Below are positions 24 through 7,103 of a stretch of DNA of 7,348 bases, piece by piece. Source of the stretch: Bacillota bacterium (GTDB lineage: Bacteria; Bacillota; Bacilli; Bacillales_B; DSM-18226); assembly GCA_030705665.1 (NCBI GenBank), contig JAUZQA010000207.1, forward strand, positions 1-7,348. Reading direction: 5' to 3'. Numbering within the stretch: position 1 is the stretch's first letter; each line of letters starts with the position of its first letter. The notes below the pieces were generated by a model. That model did no database searches, was not told the origin of the DNA, and saw only the letters and a list, made by a program, of their open reading frames with translations. Both the position numbers and the translations under genes were made by a program.

Positions 24-141
<118 letters not shown>

Positions 142-144
142 TTT

Positions 145-175
145 ACTATATAGTATTATAAAAATACTACATAGT
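145..175 (+). other. AT-rich stem-loop between 5S and tRNA
   Basis: The 5S-tRNA spacer folds into a hairpin. ACTAT-A-TAGTATT (145-157) pairs with AATACTA-C-ATAGT (163-175) around a five-base loop, giving twelve pairs and one A-C mismatch, followed by TTTCT. It sits just where the precursor must be cut to release 5S and tRNA, so a processing or transcript-stabilising role is the simplest reading. The short T run would also allow weak termination. The fold is seen in the sequence; the role is inferred. Confidence 0.55.
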
Positions 176-185
176 TTTCTATTGT

Positions 186-348
<163 letters not shown>

Positions 349-1675: not shown

Positions 1676-2125
1676 ATGGATGAATCAATCGTTTTTCGGT
1701 TTATGAGGGAAGAGGATATTGATCAGGTTTTAGAAATTGAACATAGGTCCTTTACAACACCTTGGAGCCGCGAAGCCTTCTATAATGAGCTCAACATGAA
1801 TAAATTCGCGGTTTATATTGTACTTGAGGTGGATAAAAAAGTCGTTGGATATTGTGGCGTGTGGGTGGTTATTGATGAAGCACATATAACCAATATTGCC
1901 ATCCTTCCGGAATATAGAGGGAGAAAATTTGGTGAAGCCTTAATGCAAAACCTATTTGATGTAGCCAAAACGATGGGAGCAAAAAGCATGACCCTTGAAG
2001 TTCGGGTTACAAATTATGTCGCCCAAGCCTTGTATCGCAAGTTTGGTTTTCAAAAAGGCGGCTTACGTAAAAATTATTATACTGATAATCAGGAAGATGC
2101 ACTAGTAATGTGGGTGAAATTATGA
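1676..2125 (+). CDS. rimI: RimI, ribosomal protein S18 N-alpha-acetyltransferase
   Basis: This is a GNAT-fold acetyltransferase of 149 residues (YdiD in B. subtilis). RimI transfers acetyl from acetyl-CoA to the N-terminal residue of ribosomal protein S18. The acetyl-CoA pyrophosphate loop RKFGEA (83-88) fits the Q/RxxGxG/A motif and follows the strand [12 protein letters not shown]. The LEVR...N...ALYRKFGF block keeps a Glu (108) and a Tyr (120) twelve residues apart, the spacing of the proposed catalytic pair of E. coli RimI (Glu103, Tyr115). The ATG has an AGGA-type ribosome binding site at about 1662-1665. The TGA stop overlaps the tsaD start. The fold and subfamily are clear; S18 as substrate is inferred from the family and context. 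Confidence 0.92.
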
Positions 2126-3147
2126 AAATTGATTTAATGGTGATGGGAGTAGAGTCCAGCTGTGACGAGACAGCAATAGCCATTATTAAAAACGGTAGAG
2201 AAATTGCTGCCAATGTTGTGGCTTCGCAAATTGAAAGCCATAAACGATTTGGAGGAGTGGTACCGGAAATCGCCTCCCGCCACCATGTGGAGCAAATTAC
2301 AATCGTTATAGAGGAAGCGATGAATCAAGCGGGGATTGAATTTGCTGACCTTGATGCGATTGCTGTTACAGAAGGTCCTGGATTGGTGGGAGCATTGTTA
2401 ATTGGAGTGAATGCTGCAAAAGCACTTGCCTTTGCTCATGATATTCCACTTGTTCCTGTTCATCATATTGCCGGGCATATTTATGCGAATCGTTTAGTAG
2501 CAGAAATGAAGTTTCCGCTTATTGCCCTTGTCGTTTCAGGCGGACATACTGAGCTGGTTTATATGAAGGAGCATGGGCATTTTGAAGTCATTGGGGAAAC
2601 AAGAGACGACGCTGCCGGTGAGGCGTACGATAAAGTGGCCAGAACCTTAAACTTAACCTATCCTGGCGGTCCTCAAATTGACCGTTTAGCACAGGAGGGA
2701 AAACCAACGATTGACCTTCCGCGGGCATGGCTTGAGGAAAATTCCTATGATTTTAGCTTTAGTGGTTTAAAATCGGCTGTGATCAATACGGTTCATAACG
2801 CCGAACAACGCGGTGAAACGATTATACCTGAAGATTTAGCTGCGAGCTTTCAAGCAAGTGTGGTTGAGGTACTTGTGAAAAAAACAGAAAGAGCTGTGGC
2901 TGAATATGGGGTAAAGCAAGTATTGTTAGCTGGCGGAGTTGCTGCTAATAAAGGACTGCGAGCAGCTTTAAGCGAGGCTTTTGCTAATAAAGAAGATATT
3001 GAATTGGTTATTCCGCCTTTATCTTTCTGTACAGACAATGCCGCTATGATTGCTGCTGCCGGAAGTGTCATGTTTGAAAAAGGAAAACGTGCTGAATTAA
3101 CCTTAAATGCCAATCCGGGCCTTGAAATTGAAAAATATAACGACTAA
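2122..3147 (+). CDS. tsaD: TsaD, tRNA threonylcarbamoyladenosine transferase subunit
   Basis: TsaD (Gcp, YdiE) transfers the threonylcarbamoyl group from TC-AMP, made by TsaC, to N6 of A37 in tRNAs reading ANN codons. With the start at 2122 it has 341 residues, normal for the family. Visible motifs are [10 protein letters not shown] (9-18), SRHHVEQI (52-59), the metal-binding HxxxH as H115 and H119 within VHHIAGH, SGGHTEL (139-145), a central DFSFSGLK, and the C-terminal LAGGVAANK and FCTDNAAM blocks. I chose ATG 2122 because it overlaps the rimI stop as ATGA and has GGGTGA six or so bases upstream. The in-frame GTG at 2110 would add four residues but has no Shine-Dalgarno sequence. It is the last gene of the operon. 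Confidence 0.97.
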
Positions 3148-3218
3148 TGCTTTTGAAGAACCATTCCAATTGGATACTATATATGGCATGGAATATTTAG
3201 ATTCATGCTGGATATGGA

Positions 3219-3246
3219 GACCAAAAACGGAATTGGTTCTTTTTTT
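3219..3246 (+). terminator. weak candidate terminator of the tsaE-tsaD operon
   Basis: GACCAA (3219-3224) can pair with TTGGTT (3233-3238), counting one G-U pair, around an eight-base loop. It is followed by C and seven Ts (3240-3246). The stem is short, so efficiency is doubtful, but no better plus-strand terminator is visible after tsaD. The T run merges into the first DnaA box. Confidence 0.4.
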
Positions 3247-3412
3247 GTGGATAACTTTTTTAAAAAATTCACTGAAAGAATTAAAGTTGTTAATAAAGTA
3301 GACTTATTCTGTGGATAATGTGGATAAGTTGAATGATTTCTGTGGATAATGTGGAAAACCCTTTGGATAGTTATAGAGTTCAACTTTTAATTGTGAATAA
3401 GTTTGTGGAAAA
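3246..3412 (-). promoter_or_regulatory. DnaA-box cluster (non-oriC)
   Basis: Four exact DnaA boxes TTATCCACA occur on the minus strand, reading TGTGGATAA on the plus strand at 3246-3254, 3310-3318, 3319-3327 and 3341-3349. TTATTCACA at 3392-3400 also fits the TTATNCACA consensus. TTTTCCACA near-boxes lie at 3350-3358 and 3404-3412. All point the same way. Boxes 3310/3319 and 3341/3350 are directly adjacent at 9-base spacing, and the two pairs start 31 bases apart, about three helical turns. DnaA is the replication initiator and also a transcription factor. DnaA-box clusters outside oriC are known in B. subtilis and buffer initiation; from memory one adjoins gcp (tsaD). The boxes are seen directly; binding and function are inferred. 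Confidence 0.85.
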
Positions 3413-3441
3413 AAAGAGGCAGGAGTAATTCCTGCCTCTTT
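3409..3441 (-). terminator. rho-independent terminator of ydiF
   Basis: A twelve-pair perfect stem, AAAGAGGCAGGA (3413-3424) with TCCTGCCTCTTT (3430-3441), closes a five-base loop. Read on the minus strand it lies four bases past the ydiF stop and is followed by a run of seven Ts (complement of 3409-3415), so it is a strong ydiF terminator. On the plus strand it has only a short T run, so termination from the tsaD side would be weaker. Its T tract overlaps the last DnaA near-box. Confidence 0.9.
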
Positions 3442-3445
3442 AGTG

Positions 3446-5362
3446 TCATTCTGCCAATTCAGCCCATTCATCCATTAGCTGTTCGAGGTCGGCTTTAGCT
3501 TGGTCATTTTTTTGAGTAATTTCTAGTACTCTTTCGTGATCCTGGAAAATATCAGGTTCACAGAGCTGCTGTTCATAGCTGGCAATTAATTCTTCATGTT
3601 CTTCAATCTTCAATTCAAGCTCTTCTAACTTCCGCTTTTTCTGTCTTTCTTGTTTTTTGTTTTCTTTGTCTTGTTGATAATTGGATTTATCTTGTAATTC
3701 TTGAGAGATAACTATTTTGGATGTTAATTTTTCAAGCTGCTCCAGCTCTTCCATTTCGGTTTTCTTTTCGACATAGTAATCGTAGTCACCAAGATATTCC
3801 ATGCAGCCTTCGCTGCTTAATTCTATGATTTTAGTAGCAATTCGATTAATAAAATATCGATCATGAGAAACAAACAAAATGGTTCCCGGATAATCAATTA
3901 AGGCATTTTCAAGCACTTCCTTGCTGTCGAGATCAAGGTGGTTGGTGGGCTCATCCAAAATTAATAAATTAGCTTTTTCCAACATTAATTTTGCCAATGC
4001 CAGCCGTGCTTTCTCGCCGCCGCTTAAGGTAGAGACAATTTTGAGGACATCATCACCTGAAAATAAAAAGTTCCCTAGAGTCGTTCGGATTTCCTTTTCT
4101 GTTTTTAGTGGATAGACATCCCAAAGCTCGTTCAATACCCGTTTGTTGGAGGTTAATTCAGCTTGCTCCTGGTCATAGTATCCAATTGAAAGGTTTGAAC
4201 CGTATGAAAAAGCTCCAGCAAGGGCTGGCTGCTTTTTAATAATGGTTTTAAGCAGCGTGGATTTACCAATACCATTTGGACCTACAAGAGCAATGCTGTC
4301 TCCTCGGGAAATACGAAATGAGATCCTCTCGGAAACTTTTTTATCGTTATACCCAACCGATAGAGAATCTACCATCAGCACATCATTTCCGCTTTGTTTT
4401 TCGATTTCAAACGAAAAAGAGGCAGACTTTTCATCGCCGAGAGGTCGGTCCATCCTATCCATTTTATCAAGCTGTTTTCGGCGGCTCTGGGCTCTTTTGG
4501 TTGTGGAAGCACGAGCTAAATTTCGTTGAATAAAATCCTGCAGGTCAGCGATTTCCTGCTGCTGTTTTTCATAAAGCTTCATTTCACGCTCGTAATTTGC
4601 TGCCTTTTGATCTAAATAAGAGCTATAATTGCCAGGGTATTTCCTAATCTGATGGCGGGATACTTCATAAACCTGAGTGACCACCTTATCGAGAAAATAG
4701 CGGTCATGTGAGACAATTAAAATGGCCCCATCATAACCTTGAAGGTATTGTTCAAGCCAAGAAAGGGTTTCAATGTCTAGATGGTTGGTTGGCTCGTCCA
4801 GGATTAAGATATCAGGCTTTGTTAGTAATAGCTTTCCAAGGGCAAGACGTGTTTTTTGCCCTCCGCTCATGCTGGCAATCATGGCAGATGAATCGTGAAA
4901 GTTTAAACCGTGCAGGACAGAACGGATATCGGCTTCGTACTGATAGCCGCCTTGTTCTTTAAATTTTATCTGCAATTGGTCATATTCTTTCAAAGTTCTT
5001 TCATATTTAGCGGGATTGTTAAAAGTGGATGGATCCGCCATTTGCTCTTCTAAATTCCTTAATGATTTTTCCATATTCCGAACATGCTCGAATACAGACA
5101 GCATTTCATCCCAAATCGATAATTTGGATTCTAAACCAGTGTTTTGGGCTAAATAGCCAATCGTCACTTCTTTAGGTTTGATCAATTCACCATCATCGAA
5201 AGAAAGATGACCGGCGATAATCTTTAGCAAGGTTGATTTTCCAGCACCATTCCGTCCAACAAGGGCAACACGATCGCGGGATTGTAATTCAAGCTTTATA
5301 TTCGATAAAATAAGATCAGCACCATAATACTTTGAGAGTTGATTCACTTGTAATAAAATCAT
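3446..5362 (-). CDS. ydiF: ABC-F family ATPase (YdiF type), ribosome-associated
   Basis: This is a soluble ABC-F protein of 638 residues with two nucleotide-binding domains and no membrane segments. The family binds the ribosomal E site and acts on stalled or misplaced P-site tRNA. Domain 1 has Walker A GRNGAGKS (36-43), signature SGGQKTRLALG (166-176) and Walker B LILDEPTNHLD (186-196), with catalytic Glu190; the insertion near 93-140 is the arm region. A charged helical linker (about 245-320, rich in K, R, Q and E) is the P-site tRNA interaction motif. Domain 2 has GPNGIGKS near 360, SGGEKARLAL near 446 and LILDEPTNHLD near 466. The last 90 residues form a charged coiled coil, as in Uup-like members. 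The start is preceded by GAGGTGA (5369-5375) six bases away. It is monocistronic, convergent with tsaD and divergent from moaC. An antibiotic-resistance role is not indicated. The E. coli gene also called ydiF is unrelated. Confidence 0.94.
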   Translation of the reverse strand: MILLQVNQLSKYYGADLILSNIKLELQSRDRVALVGRNGAGKSTLLKIIAGHLSFDDGELIKPKEVTIGYLAQNTGLESKLSIWDEMLSVFEHVRNMEKSLRNLEEQMADPSTFNNPAKYERTLKEYDQLQIKFKEQGGYQYEADIRSVLHGLNFHDSSAMIASMSGGQKTRLALGKLLLTKPDILILDEPTNHLDIETLSWLEQYLQGYDGAILIVSHDRYFLDKVVTQVYEVSRHQIRKYPGNYSSYLDQKAANYEREMKLYEKQQQEIADLQDFIQRNLARASTTKRAQSRRKQLDKMDRMDRPLGDEKSASFSFEIEKQSGNDVLMVDSLSVGYNDKKVSERISFRISRGDSIALVGPNGIGKSTLLKTIIKKQPALAGAFSYGSNLSIGYYDQEQAELTSNKRVLNELWDVYPLKTEKEIRTTLGNFLFSGDDVLKIVSTLSGGEKARLALAKLMLEKANLLILDEPTNHLDLDSKEVLENALIDYPGTILFVSHDRYFINRIATKIIELSSEGCMEYLGDYDYYVEKKTEMEELEQLEKLTSKIVISQELQDKSNYQQDKENKKQERQKKRKLEELELKIEEHEELIASYEQQLCEPDIFQDHERVLEITQKNDQAKADLEQLMDEWAELAE

Positions 5363-6802: not shown

Positions 6803-6843
6803 ATTACTTACTATAAGGACTATCAAAAATATGGGAGCATTGA

Positions 6844-7103
6844 GGCTTCCATGTGCCCGAAGCAGGGCAGAAATAGGTGGGAAGGTAACGTAGGGGGCAT
6901 CTATGTGCCCGAAGCGGAGCTGGAATAGAGAGTAAGGTAACATAGGGGGCTTCTACGTGCCCGAAGCGCTGCTGGAATAGAGAGCAAGGTAACATAGAAG
7001 ACATCTACGTGCCCGAAGTGCTGCTGGAATAGAGAGTAAGGTAACAAAGAAGGCATCCATGTGCCCAAACAGATTCAGAAACAAAGACCAAAGTAACATA
7101 GAG
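6844..7103. repeat. five-unit tandem array, exact 52-bp period
   Basis: Five units start at 6844, 6896, 6948, 7000 and 7052. GTGCCCGAAG recurs at 6853, 6905, 6957 and 7009, with a degenerate copy at 7061. GTAAC recurs at 6885, 6937, 6989, 7041 and 7093. Units 2-4 are nearly identical (CTGGAATAGAGAG is shared), while units 1 and 5 are diverged, the usual pattern of an array kept uniform at its centre. There are no indels. GGGCAT...GTGCCC can form short hairpins at some unit joints. The period is not a multiple of three, so a minus-strand open frame across it (6804-7004) cannot encode a periodic peptide and is unlikely to be a gene. Similar repeat-derived small ORFs are, from memory, dispersed in Bacillus genomes. 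Its role is unknown. Confidence 0.9.

What the first reader, a model, noticed from the sequence alone, without database searches (positions are those of the whole stretch)
3246..3412. Dense DnaA-box cluster between tsaD and ydiF, far from any dnaA/oriC context
Four exact TTATCCACA boxes, one TTATTCACA and two TTTTCCACA near-boxes lie within 167 bases, all co-oriented, with abutting pairs at 9-base spacing repeated 31 bases apart. A single exact 9-mer is expected by chance far less than once per window of this size, so seven related sites in one gap are not random. Non-oriC DnaA-box clusters that titrate DnaA are known in B. subtilis, and I recall one near gcp. If so, this is a conserved replication-control site held next to a tRNA-modification gene, with a box architecture that can be compared across species.
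Basis: partly seen in the sequence, partly recalled or inferred. Interest (0 to 1): 0.7.

Follow-up and report, generated by a model that had tools for sequence, protein, structure and literature searches.

The report
Conserved DnaA-box cluster beside tsaD
This is a cluster of binding sites for DnaA, the protein that starts chromosome copying; the same spot is already known to bind DnaA in Bacillus subtilis, and the comparison made here finds it kept in many relatives, with the sites mostly lined up on one face of the DNA helix.

Summary
In detail: seven co-oriented DnaA boxes (4 exact, 3 with one mismatch) at 3246-3412; no shuffle reaches the window's counts. The window (a Neobacillus or near kin) carries the same element, so the kind is known. 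It is not far from oriC: 246 kb (4.4%) in the closest genome.

What the comparison adds: the cluster follows tsaD in 79 of 80 close relatives, 79 of 90 loci read of the order sample and 60 of 90 of the class sample; control patterns give 0 or 1. Boxes drift less than spacers. Same-strand spacings follow a 10.5-bp period, which suggests a structured DnaA assembly. Long DnaA-trio runs are lacking, so it is probably no origin. Clusters beside tsaC, rlmH and mnmE also recur (18 of 30, 11 of 28, 13 of 29 loci; groEL control 0 of 30). DnaA binding and replication effect are untested in this organism.

The parts
2110..3147 (+). tsaD (gcp); GTG at 2110 or ATG at 2122; the conserved anchor of the cluster
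   Evidence: TIGR03723, 451 bits; ORF
3155..3246 (+). long hairpin followed by a run of T: probable terminator of the tsaD operon, ending where box 1 starts
   Evidence: fold of 3150-3248: -31.8 kcal/mol, z -5.87, 0 of 200 shuffles as stable; the simple terminator scan did not list it
3246..3254 (-). DnaA box 1, exact TTATCCACA
3310..3318 (-). DnaA box 2, exact; abuts box 3
3319..3327 (-). DnaA box 3, exact; starts 22 bp before box 4
   Evidence: this spacing is common in relatives
3341..3349 (-). DnaA box 4, exact; abuts box 5
3350..3358 (-). near-box 5, TTTTCCACA; this imperfect form is the commonest second member of abutting pairs in close relatives (71 of 127 pairs)
3392..3400 (-). near-box 6, TTATTCACA; 42 bp from box 5, 12 bp from box 7
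3404..3412 (-). near-box 7, TTTTCCACA; its T run is part of the T run of the ydiF hairpin
3402..3446 (-). hairpin with a run of T: probable ydiF terminator
   Evidence: fold -19.8 kcal/mol, z -7.08, 0 of 200 shuffles as stable; not listed by the simple terminator scan
3446..5362 (-). ydiF, ABC-F ATPase, convergent with tsaD
   Evidence: NF000355, 490 bits, over cut-off; the name ydiF is from synteny

Best explanation
It is the Neobacillus counterpart of the gcp/ydiF DnaA-box cluster of B. subtilis, an oriC-proximal, non-coding DnaA-binding locus that helps restrain replication initiation. Proposed working: ATP-DnaA loads on the strong boxes (1-4) and spreads cooperatively to abutting and phased weaker boxes (5-7), giving an assembly on one helical face. 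Because the locus lies close to oriC it is copied soon after initiation; doubling it binds more DnaA and lowers what is free to refire oriC. Shown here: sequence, position in the closest genome, conservation, strand bias, helical phasing, lack of long trio runs. Shown elsewhere for B. subtilis: binding, preference for ATP-DnaA, early initiation when six clusters are removed together (the passages I read do not name the six; that gcp/ydiF is one is recalled). Inferred: that this copy binds DnaA, that phasing reflects one assembly, and the timing argument.
For: Cluster far above chance. The same gap is a top in vitro DnaA region in B. subtilis: 10 sites, Kd 0.15 uM with ATP-DnaA and 0.33 with ADP-DnaA, 16-fold more DNA recovered with ATP- than ADP-DnaA at 55 nM (PMC4447404). 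Removing six clusters gives early initiation, partly relieved by one reintroduced cluster (PMC5295017; PMC13220808). The eight DnaA-regulated gene sets listed for B. subtilis do not include gcp or ydiF (PMC8203912), so a transcriptional role is the less likely reason for conservation. Cluster after tsaD: 79 of 80 near, 79 of 90 order loci, 60 of 90 class loci; control patterns 0 or 1 (controls run to 1490 bp). Pairwise identity 0.88 inside boxes, 0.69 outside; boxes higher in 1825 of 1926 ordered pairs. Phasing at 10.5 bp R 0.75, 0.47, 0.66 in the three sets, largest null 0.196; on distinct architectures of the class-only set R 0.67, n=160. Chromosomes with the cluster have tsaD nearer dnaA (median 9.7%, n=20) than those without (22%, n=7).
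Against: No binding or replication data for this organism. 30 of 90 class loci lack a cluster in the stretch read, whole clades among them, so it is dispensable in some lineages. Against titration as such: about 10-fold overproduction of DnaA did not cause over-initiation in B. subtilis (PMC13220808), and a 2017 review says clusters with significant roles have not been identified there, the effect being strong only when all six were removed (PMC5295017). The distance test is not corrected for relatedness, and 9 of 36 genomes (all with the cluster) were left out. Related rows inflate the phasing and identity statistics; the order set has clear out-of-phase spacings (56-58, 78 bp). The convergent setting holds in close relatives (75 of 79) and mostly in the order (59 of 75) but not in the class-only set (14 of 48), so shelter from transcription is no general requirement. 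Confidence lowered from 0.85 to 0.8 on the overproduction result.
Confidence: 0.8

Rival explanations
1. Passive sink: independent boxes soak up DnaA; strand and spacing do not matter. (A version of the same role; its odds overlap with the best explanation.)
For: Several boxes are kept while positions turn over; PMC5295017 reads the six-cluster deletion as sensitivity to free DnaA; PMC11019786 says the clusters sequester DnaA.
Against: Spacings favour whole turns in all three sets, and most boxes of a cluster read TGTGGATAA in the tsaD direction in 79 of 79 near, 73 of 76 order and 48 of 54 class clusters within 800 bp; a pure sink needs neither.
Confidence: 0.3
2. DnaA-controlled promoter or terminator region acting on tsaD, ydiF or an antisense transcript.
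For: Other B. subtilis clusters sit upstream of DnaA-regulated genes (PMC8203912); two weak promoter-like sites fall among the boxes; in the class-only set the next long frame is co-directional in 34 of 48, so a promoter for it is possible there.
Against: Promoter-like sites are at chance level (2 found, 1.9 expected); both flanking genes end at the cluster here; gcp and ydiF are not in the list of DnaA-regulated sets.
Confidence: 0.06
3. A second, cryptic replication origin.
For: Abutting co-oriented boxes resemble the box pair that loads DnaA at oriC (PMC6669920).
Against: Runs of 4 or more DnaA-trios beside a box: 0 of 48 class-only clusters and 5 of 80 near loci (none of 5 or more), against 18 of 30 oriC loci; window best run 2, G001 oriC 6. 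The test is imperfect: 12 of 30 true oriC loci also fail it, and oriC stretches were longer. A B. subtilis study with initiation blocked judged use of another origin unlikely (PMC11019786).
Confidence: 0.02
4. Chance or drift: a run of similar 9-mers made by local duplication.
For: Abutting pairs repeat at 31 bp, as a duplication would leave.
Against: Same element at the same gene in most relatives read, controls 0 or 1; boxes drift less than the bases between them.
Confidence: 0.01

Closest known systems
B. subtilis gcp/ydiF DnaA-box cluster (region 4 of Table 1 in PMC4447404; recalled as one of the clusters of Okumura 2012, which is not held)
   Same: Same gap between the 3' ends of tsaD/gcp and ydiF; many boxes (10 sites reported there, 7 here).
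   Different: Different genus; binding measured there, not here.
E. coli datA and DARS
   Same: Non-coding DnaA-box loci outside oriC that tune initiation.
   Different: datA acts with IHF to promote DnaA-ATP hydrolysis; B. subtilis lacks IHF, datA and DARS (PMC13220808). No hydrolysis or exchange activity was tested here.
oriC of Bacilli
   Same: TTATCCACA boxes with phasing at about 10.5 bp (R 0.40, n=195; phasing of a distal incC box shown in PMC6669920).
   Different: oriC boxes lie on both strands (majority strand 0.60, against 0.98 near and 0.77 class-only at tsaD); 18 of 30 oriC loci have trio runs of 4 or more, 0 of 48 class-only tsaD clusters do. Stretch lengths differ between the two, so the R values are only roughly comparable.

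Membership tests
B. subtilis-type DnaA-box cluster (DBC), gcp/ydiF member | Several DnaA boxes in the gap between the 3' ends of tsaD/gcp and ydiF | tested here: met
   B. subtilis location from PMC4447404
B. subtilis-type DnaA-box cluster (DBC), gcp/ydiF member | Lies close to oriC | tested here: met
   tested in the closest genome only: 246 kb, 4.4%, in G001; the window's own genome is not held
B. subtilis-type DnaA-box cluster (DBC), gcp/ydiF member | High-affinity, ATP-favoured DnaA binding | not testable with these tools
   shown for B. subtilis only
B. subtilis-type DnaA-box cluster (DBC), gcp/ydiF member | Removal, with the other clusters, makes initiation early | not testable with these tools
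   reported for B. subtilis
Replication origin of the B. subtilis type | DnaA-trios next to a DnaA-box pair | tested here: not met
   best run 2 in the window, 6 at G001 oriC; the test misses 12 of 30 true oriC loci at a run of 4
Replication origin of the B. subtilis type | Next to dnaA | tested here: not met
   no dnaA among the seven window genes scanned; dnaA is 246 kb away in G001
datA / DARS | IHF (or Fis) site and DnaA nucleotide switching | not tested
   IHF is reported absent from B. subtilis; no site search made here
DnaA-regulated promoter | Promoter overlapped by the boxes and a regulated gene | tested here: inconclusive
   promoter-like sites at chance level; expression not testable

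The most novel reading that the evidence does not exclude
The tsaD cluster is an ancestral control element of the class Bacilli: a phase-locked, strand-biased array on which ATP-DnaA forms a defined assembly that senses DnaA-ATP, a functional counterpart of datA with other parts, and not a mere sink. It belongs to an old oriC-proximal set of four clusters, all beside tRNA/rRNA-modification genes (two of them, tsaC and tsaD, for the same t6A modification), so a link between t6A synthesis and initiation control may have kept them there.
Probability: 0.25. Interest if true: 0.75.

Novelty: new member of a known kind. Interest (0 to 1): 0.5.

Why it matters
How bacteria without datA, DARS or Hda, such as B. 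subtilis, limit initiation is not settled. [quoted passage not shown] The set found here gives on the order of two hundred natural versions of one such region with a measurable grammar (strand bias, 10.5-bp phase; strong-weak abutting pairs in close relatives), so spacing and orientation can be tested directly. It also suggests that clusters described in one species are old, and so a general part of initiation control to be explained.

Tried and rejected
Cryptic origin: judged unlikely for lack of long trio runs. Promoter: promoter-like sites at chance. Known RNA at the gap: none over Rfam's cut-offs, only 5S rRNA and a tRNA elsewhere. Plasmid origin: no near match in one plasmid collection. 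Shelter from transcription as the general reason for the site: fits the window and close relatives, fails in the class-only set (14 of 48 convergent; read from the longest open frame only). Strict co-orientation as a universal rule: fails outside close relatives, where an inverted box often precedes the array. The weak second box (TTTTCCACA) holds for close relatives (71 of 127 abutting pairs) but fades in the order (23 of 80) and class-only (3 of 30) sets. Phasing of the other clusters: tsaC R 0.70 (n=44) and rlmH 0.58 (n=35), but mnmE only 0.35 (n=21, p about 0.08). A first box-against-spacer comparison (0.98 against 0.51-0.59) was anchored on the boxes themselves, so partly true by construction, with boxes defined in one sequence of each pair, replaces it.

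Searches for earlier reports of class-wide conservation or phasing of these clusters (listings only) showed none that I recognised as such; Okumura 2012 and Ishikawa 2007 are not held and may contain comparisons.

Full report
Observation. The seven sites are at the stated places, on one strand, with the stated spacing. Exact sites are expected 0.07 times per shuffled window and 4 are found (largest of 200 shuffles 1). With one mismatch allowed, 10 are found in the window and 2.06 expected (largest shuffle 8). The gap lies between tsaD (TIGR03723) and a convergent ABC-F gene. Two hairpins followed by T runs bound it: 3155-3246 on the tsaD side (z -5.87) and 3402-3446 on the ydiF side (z -7.08); a simple terminator scan listed neither. 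The boxes thus fill the island between two probable terminators, and the last near-box shares the T run of the ydiF hairpin.

Identity. The closest of 80 named relatives is Neobacillus sp. PS3-12 (TsaD 96% identical), so the window is from a Neobacillus or near kin; its own genome is not held. In B. subtilis the region 'downstream of gcp; downstream of ydiF' is region 4 of the top DnaA regions in vitro, with 10 sites and a Kd of 0.15 uM (ATP-DnaA) or 0.33 uM (ADP-DnaA); at 55 nM, 16-fold more DNA was recovered with ATP- than with ADP-DnaA (PMC4447404, passages read). Two reviews state that removing six clusters outside oriC causes early initiation (PMC5295017 and PMC13220808, passages read). 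The passages do not name the six; PMC4447404 lists six strong regions outside dnaA's own, gcp/ydiF among them. The original paper (Okumura 2012) is not held. PMC13220808 adds, against a simple titration view, that 10-fold overproduced DnaA did not cause over-initiation. A review lists eight DnaA-regulated gene sets in B. subtilis; gcp and ydiF are not among them (PMC8203912, passage read).

Conservation. Three sets were read. (a) 80 named loci (best 80 of 510): both genes were found in 76, and all 76 keep at least 4 boxes with up to one mismatch; 79 of 80 have at least 3 boxes within 300 bp in the first 800 bp after tsaD. (b) An even sample of 101 genomes of the order, of which 90 loci were read and 11 were not fetched: 76 of 90 within 800 bp, 79 of 90 within 1490 bp. 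One of the order negatives may be displaced and not lost: in G005 a box pair lies 4.4 kb beyond tsaD, though G005 also has 3 matches to the reversed control pattern, the only one of 36 genomes that does. (c) An even sample of 101 genomes of the class, of which 90 loci were read (6 genomes also in set b) and 11, mostly the most divergent, were not fetched: 54 of 90 within 800 bp and 60 of 90 within the stretch held, up to about 2 kb. Controls on the same DNA to 1490 bp (the box reversed, and four permuted 9-mers) gave 0 of 80, 0 of 90, and for the class 0, 0, 0, 0 and 1 of 90. On a quick TsaD tree the trait needs 12 changes; shuffled labels need 25.2 on average. Presence is scattered over most major branches, which fits an old element with several losses; the tree cannot tell gain from loss.

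Grammar. In close relatives the core commonly reads box-22-box-9-box-42-box-12-box, usually with further boxes before it. In 1926 ordered pairs of alignable close gaps, boxes defined in the first sequence only have identity 0.88 against 0.69 outside them and 0.67 in control stretches 15 bp off (pairs are not independent). Same-strand spacings in the near set gather at 12, 22, 31, 40-43, 51-54, 61-64 and 73-74, with few at half-turns; the class-only set looks alike, the order set is noisier, with out-of-phase spacings at 56-58 and 78. The resultant length at 10.5 bp is 0.745 (near), 0.471 (order) and 0.655 (class-only, L178-L261); the largest of 500 jittered nulls is 0.110, 0.126 and 0.196. Counting each distinct architecture once and adjacent boxes only, R is 0.78, 0.56 and 0.67 (n = 332, 299, 160). 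P-values here assume independence, which related rows do not have. The surroundings of dnaA in 30 class genomes give R 0.40 (n = 195), with boxes on both strands (majority strand 0.60, against 0.98 for near and 0.77 for class-only tsaD clusters). Helical phasing of a distal box at incC has been shown by experiment (PMC6669920, passages read), so phased DnaA boxes as such are known.

The wider set. In G001 all exact TTATCCACA were listed (93 sites; the reversed control has 51). Apart from oriC, groups of three or more within 500 bp lie at 2409 kb, 2572 kb and 2602.6 kb; the tsaD cluster (2 exact plus near-boxes) is at 2853 kb and dnaA at 2606 kb. Three lone close pairs lie elsewhere (1062, 3918 and 5534 kb). 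Neighbours of the three groups are a TsaC-type synthase, RlmH, and MnmE/Jag. With the recalled equivalences YwlC = TsaC-type and YydA = RlmH, these match B. subtilis regions at ywlC, yydA and trmE/jag. In a 30-genome class sample, at least 3 boxes in 300 bp occur within or within 1.5 kb of tsaC in 18 of 30 loci, mnmE in 13 of 29, rlmH in 11 of 28, and groEL in 0 of 30; of the same 30 genomes, tsaD loci of 26 were read and 17 have it. By the coordinates, groEL lies within about 22 kb of tsaD on one contig in 23 of the 30. The rlmH clusters lie upstream of the gene in 11 of 11; mnmE clusters upstream in 8 and in the first 150 bp in 5 of 13; tsaC clusters upstream in 2, in the first 150 bp in 15 and at 271 bp in 1 of 18, counted from the earliest possible start of the G001 frame. 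At tsaD the cluster was sought on the 3' side only.

Position. In 27 of the 36 genomes with a dnaA search (9 left out because contig length was not at hand or dnaA and tsaD lie on different contigs; all 9 have the cluster), tsaD is a median 9.7% of the chromosome from dnaA where the cluster is present (n = 20) and 22% where absent (n = 7; Mann-Whitney p 0.0013, not corrected for relatedness). Exceptions exist both ways: G163, G144 and G133 keep it at 25-34%, and G160 lacks it at 13%.

Mechanism. The most likely reading is an oriC-proximal DnaA-binding locus that helps restrain re-initiation. Conservation at a site with no known regulated gene argues for a replication role. Phase and strand argue for a cooperative assembly, in line with the ATP preference measured in B. 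subtilis. Which of sink or structured complex matters in vivo is not settled by sequence. It is unlikely to be an origin by the trio test, which 12 of 30 true oriC loci also fail at a run of 4.

Novelty. The kind and the B. subtilis member are known, so this is a new member of a known kind. The class-wide recurrence of four clusters and the phased grammar may be new; eight paper searches did not show them (listings seen), but the two key papers are not held.

Noticed in passing
L111 (3362-3855), L112 (3033-3191), L113 (2091-2169), all in genome G001: The three other cluster sites near oriC, like tsaD, sit beside tRNA/rRNA-modification genes (tsaC, rlmH, mnmE); two of the four serve t6A. This may only reflect old gene order near oriC.
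   Followed up: partly
G001, 2409378-2409799, 2572032-2572198, 2602590-2602668, 2853156-2853237: All exact TTATCCACA of these four clusters point 5'->3' toward oriC; near-boxes are mixed. Leading-strand G skew could explain this.
   Followed up: partly
window 6843-7102: Tandem array of a 52-bp unit, 4.3 copies, 84% matches, in the gap after rex; function unknown.
   Followed up: no
L144, L145, L182, L210: A box on the opposite strand often lies 11-24 bp before the co-oriented array, with its own spacing phase (class-only R 0.62, n=40).
   Followed up: partly
L142, L148, L153, L158, L159, L161: In some relatives the gap between tsaD and ydiF is 2.4-3.5 kb; a cluster stays next to tsaD and more scattered boxes appear further on.
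   Followed up: no
window 25-260: 5S rRNA followed by tRNA-Met (CAT) just upstream of the tsaE-tsaB-rimI-tsaD genes.
   Followed up: no
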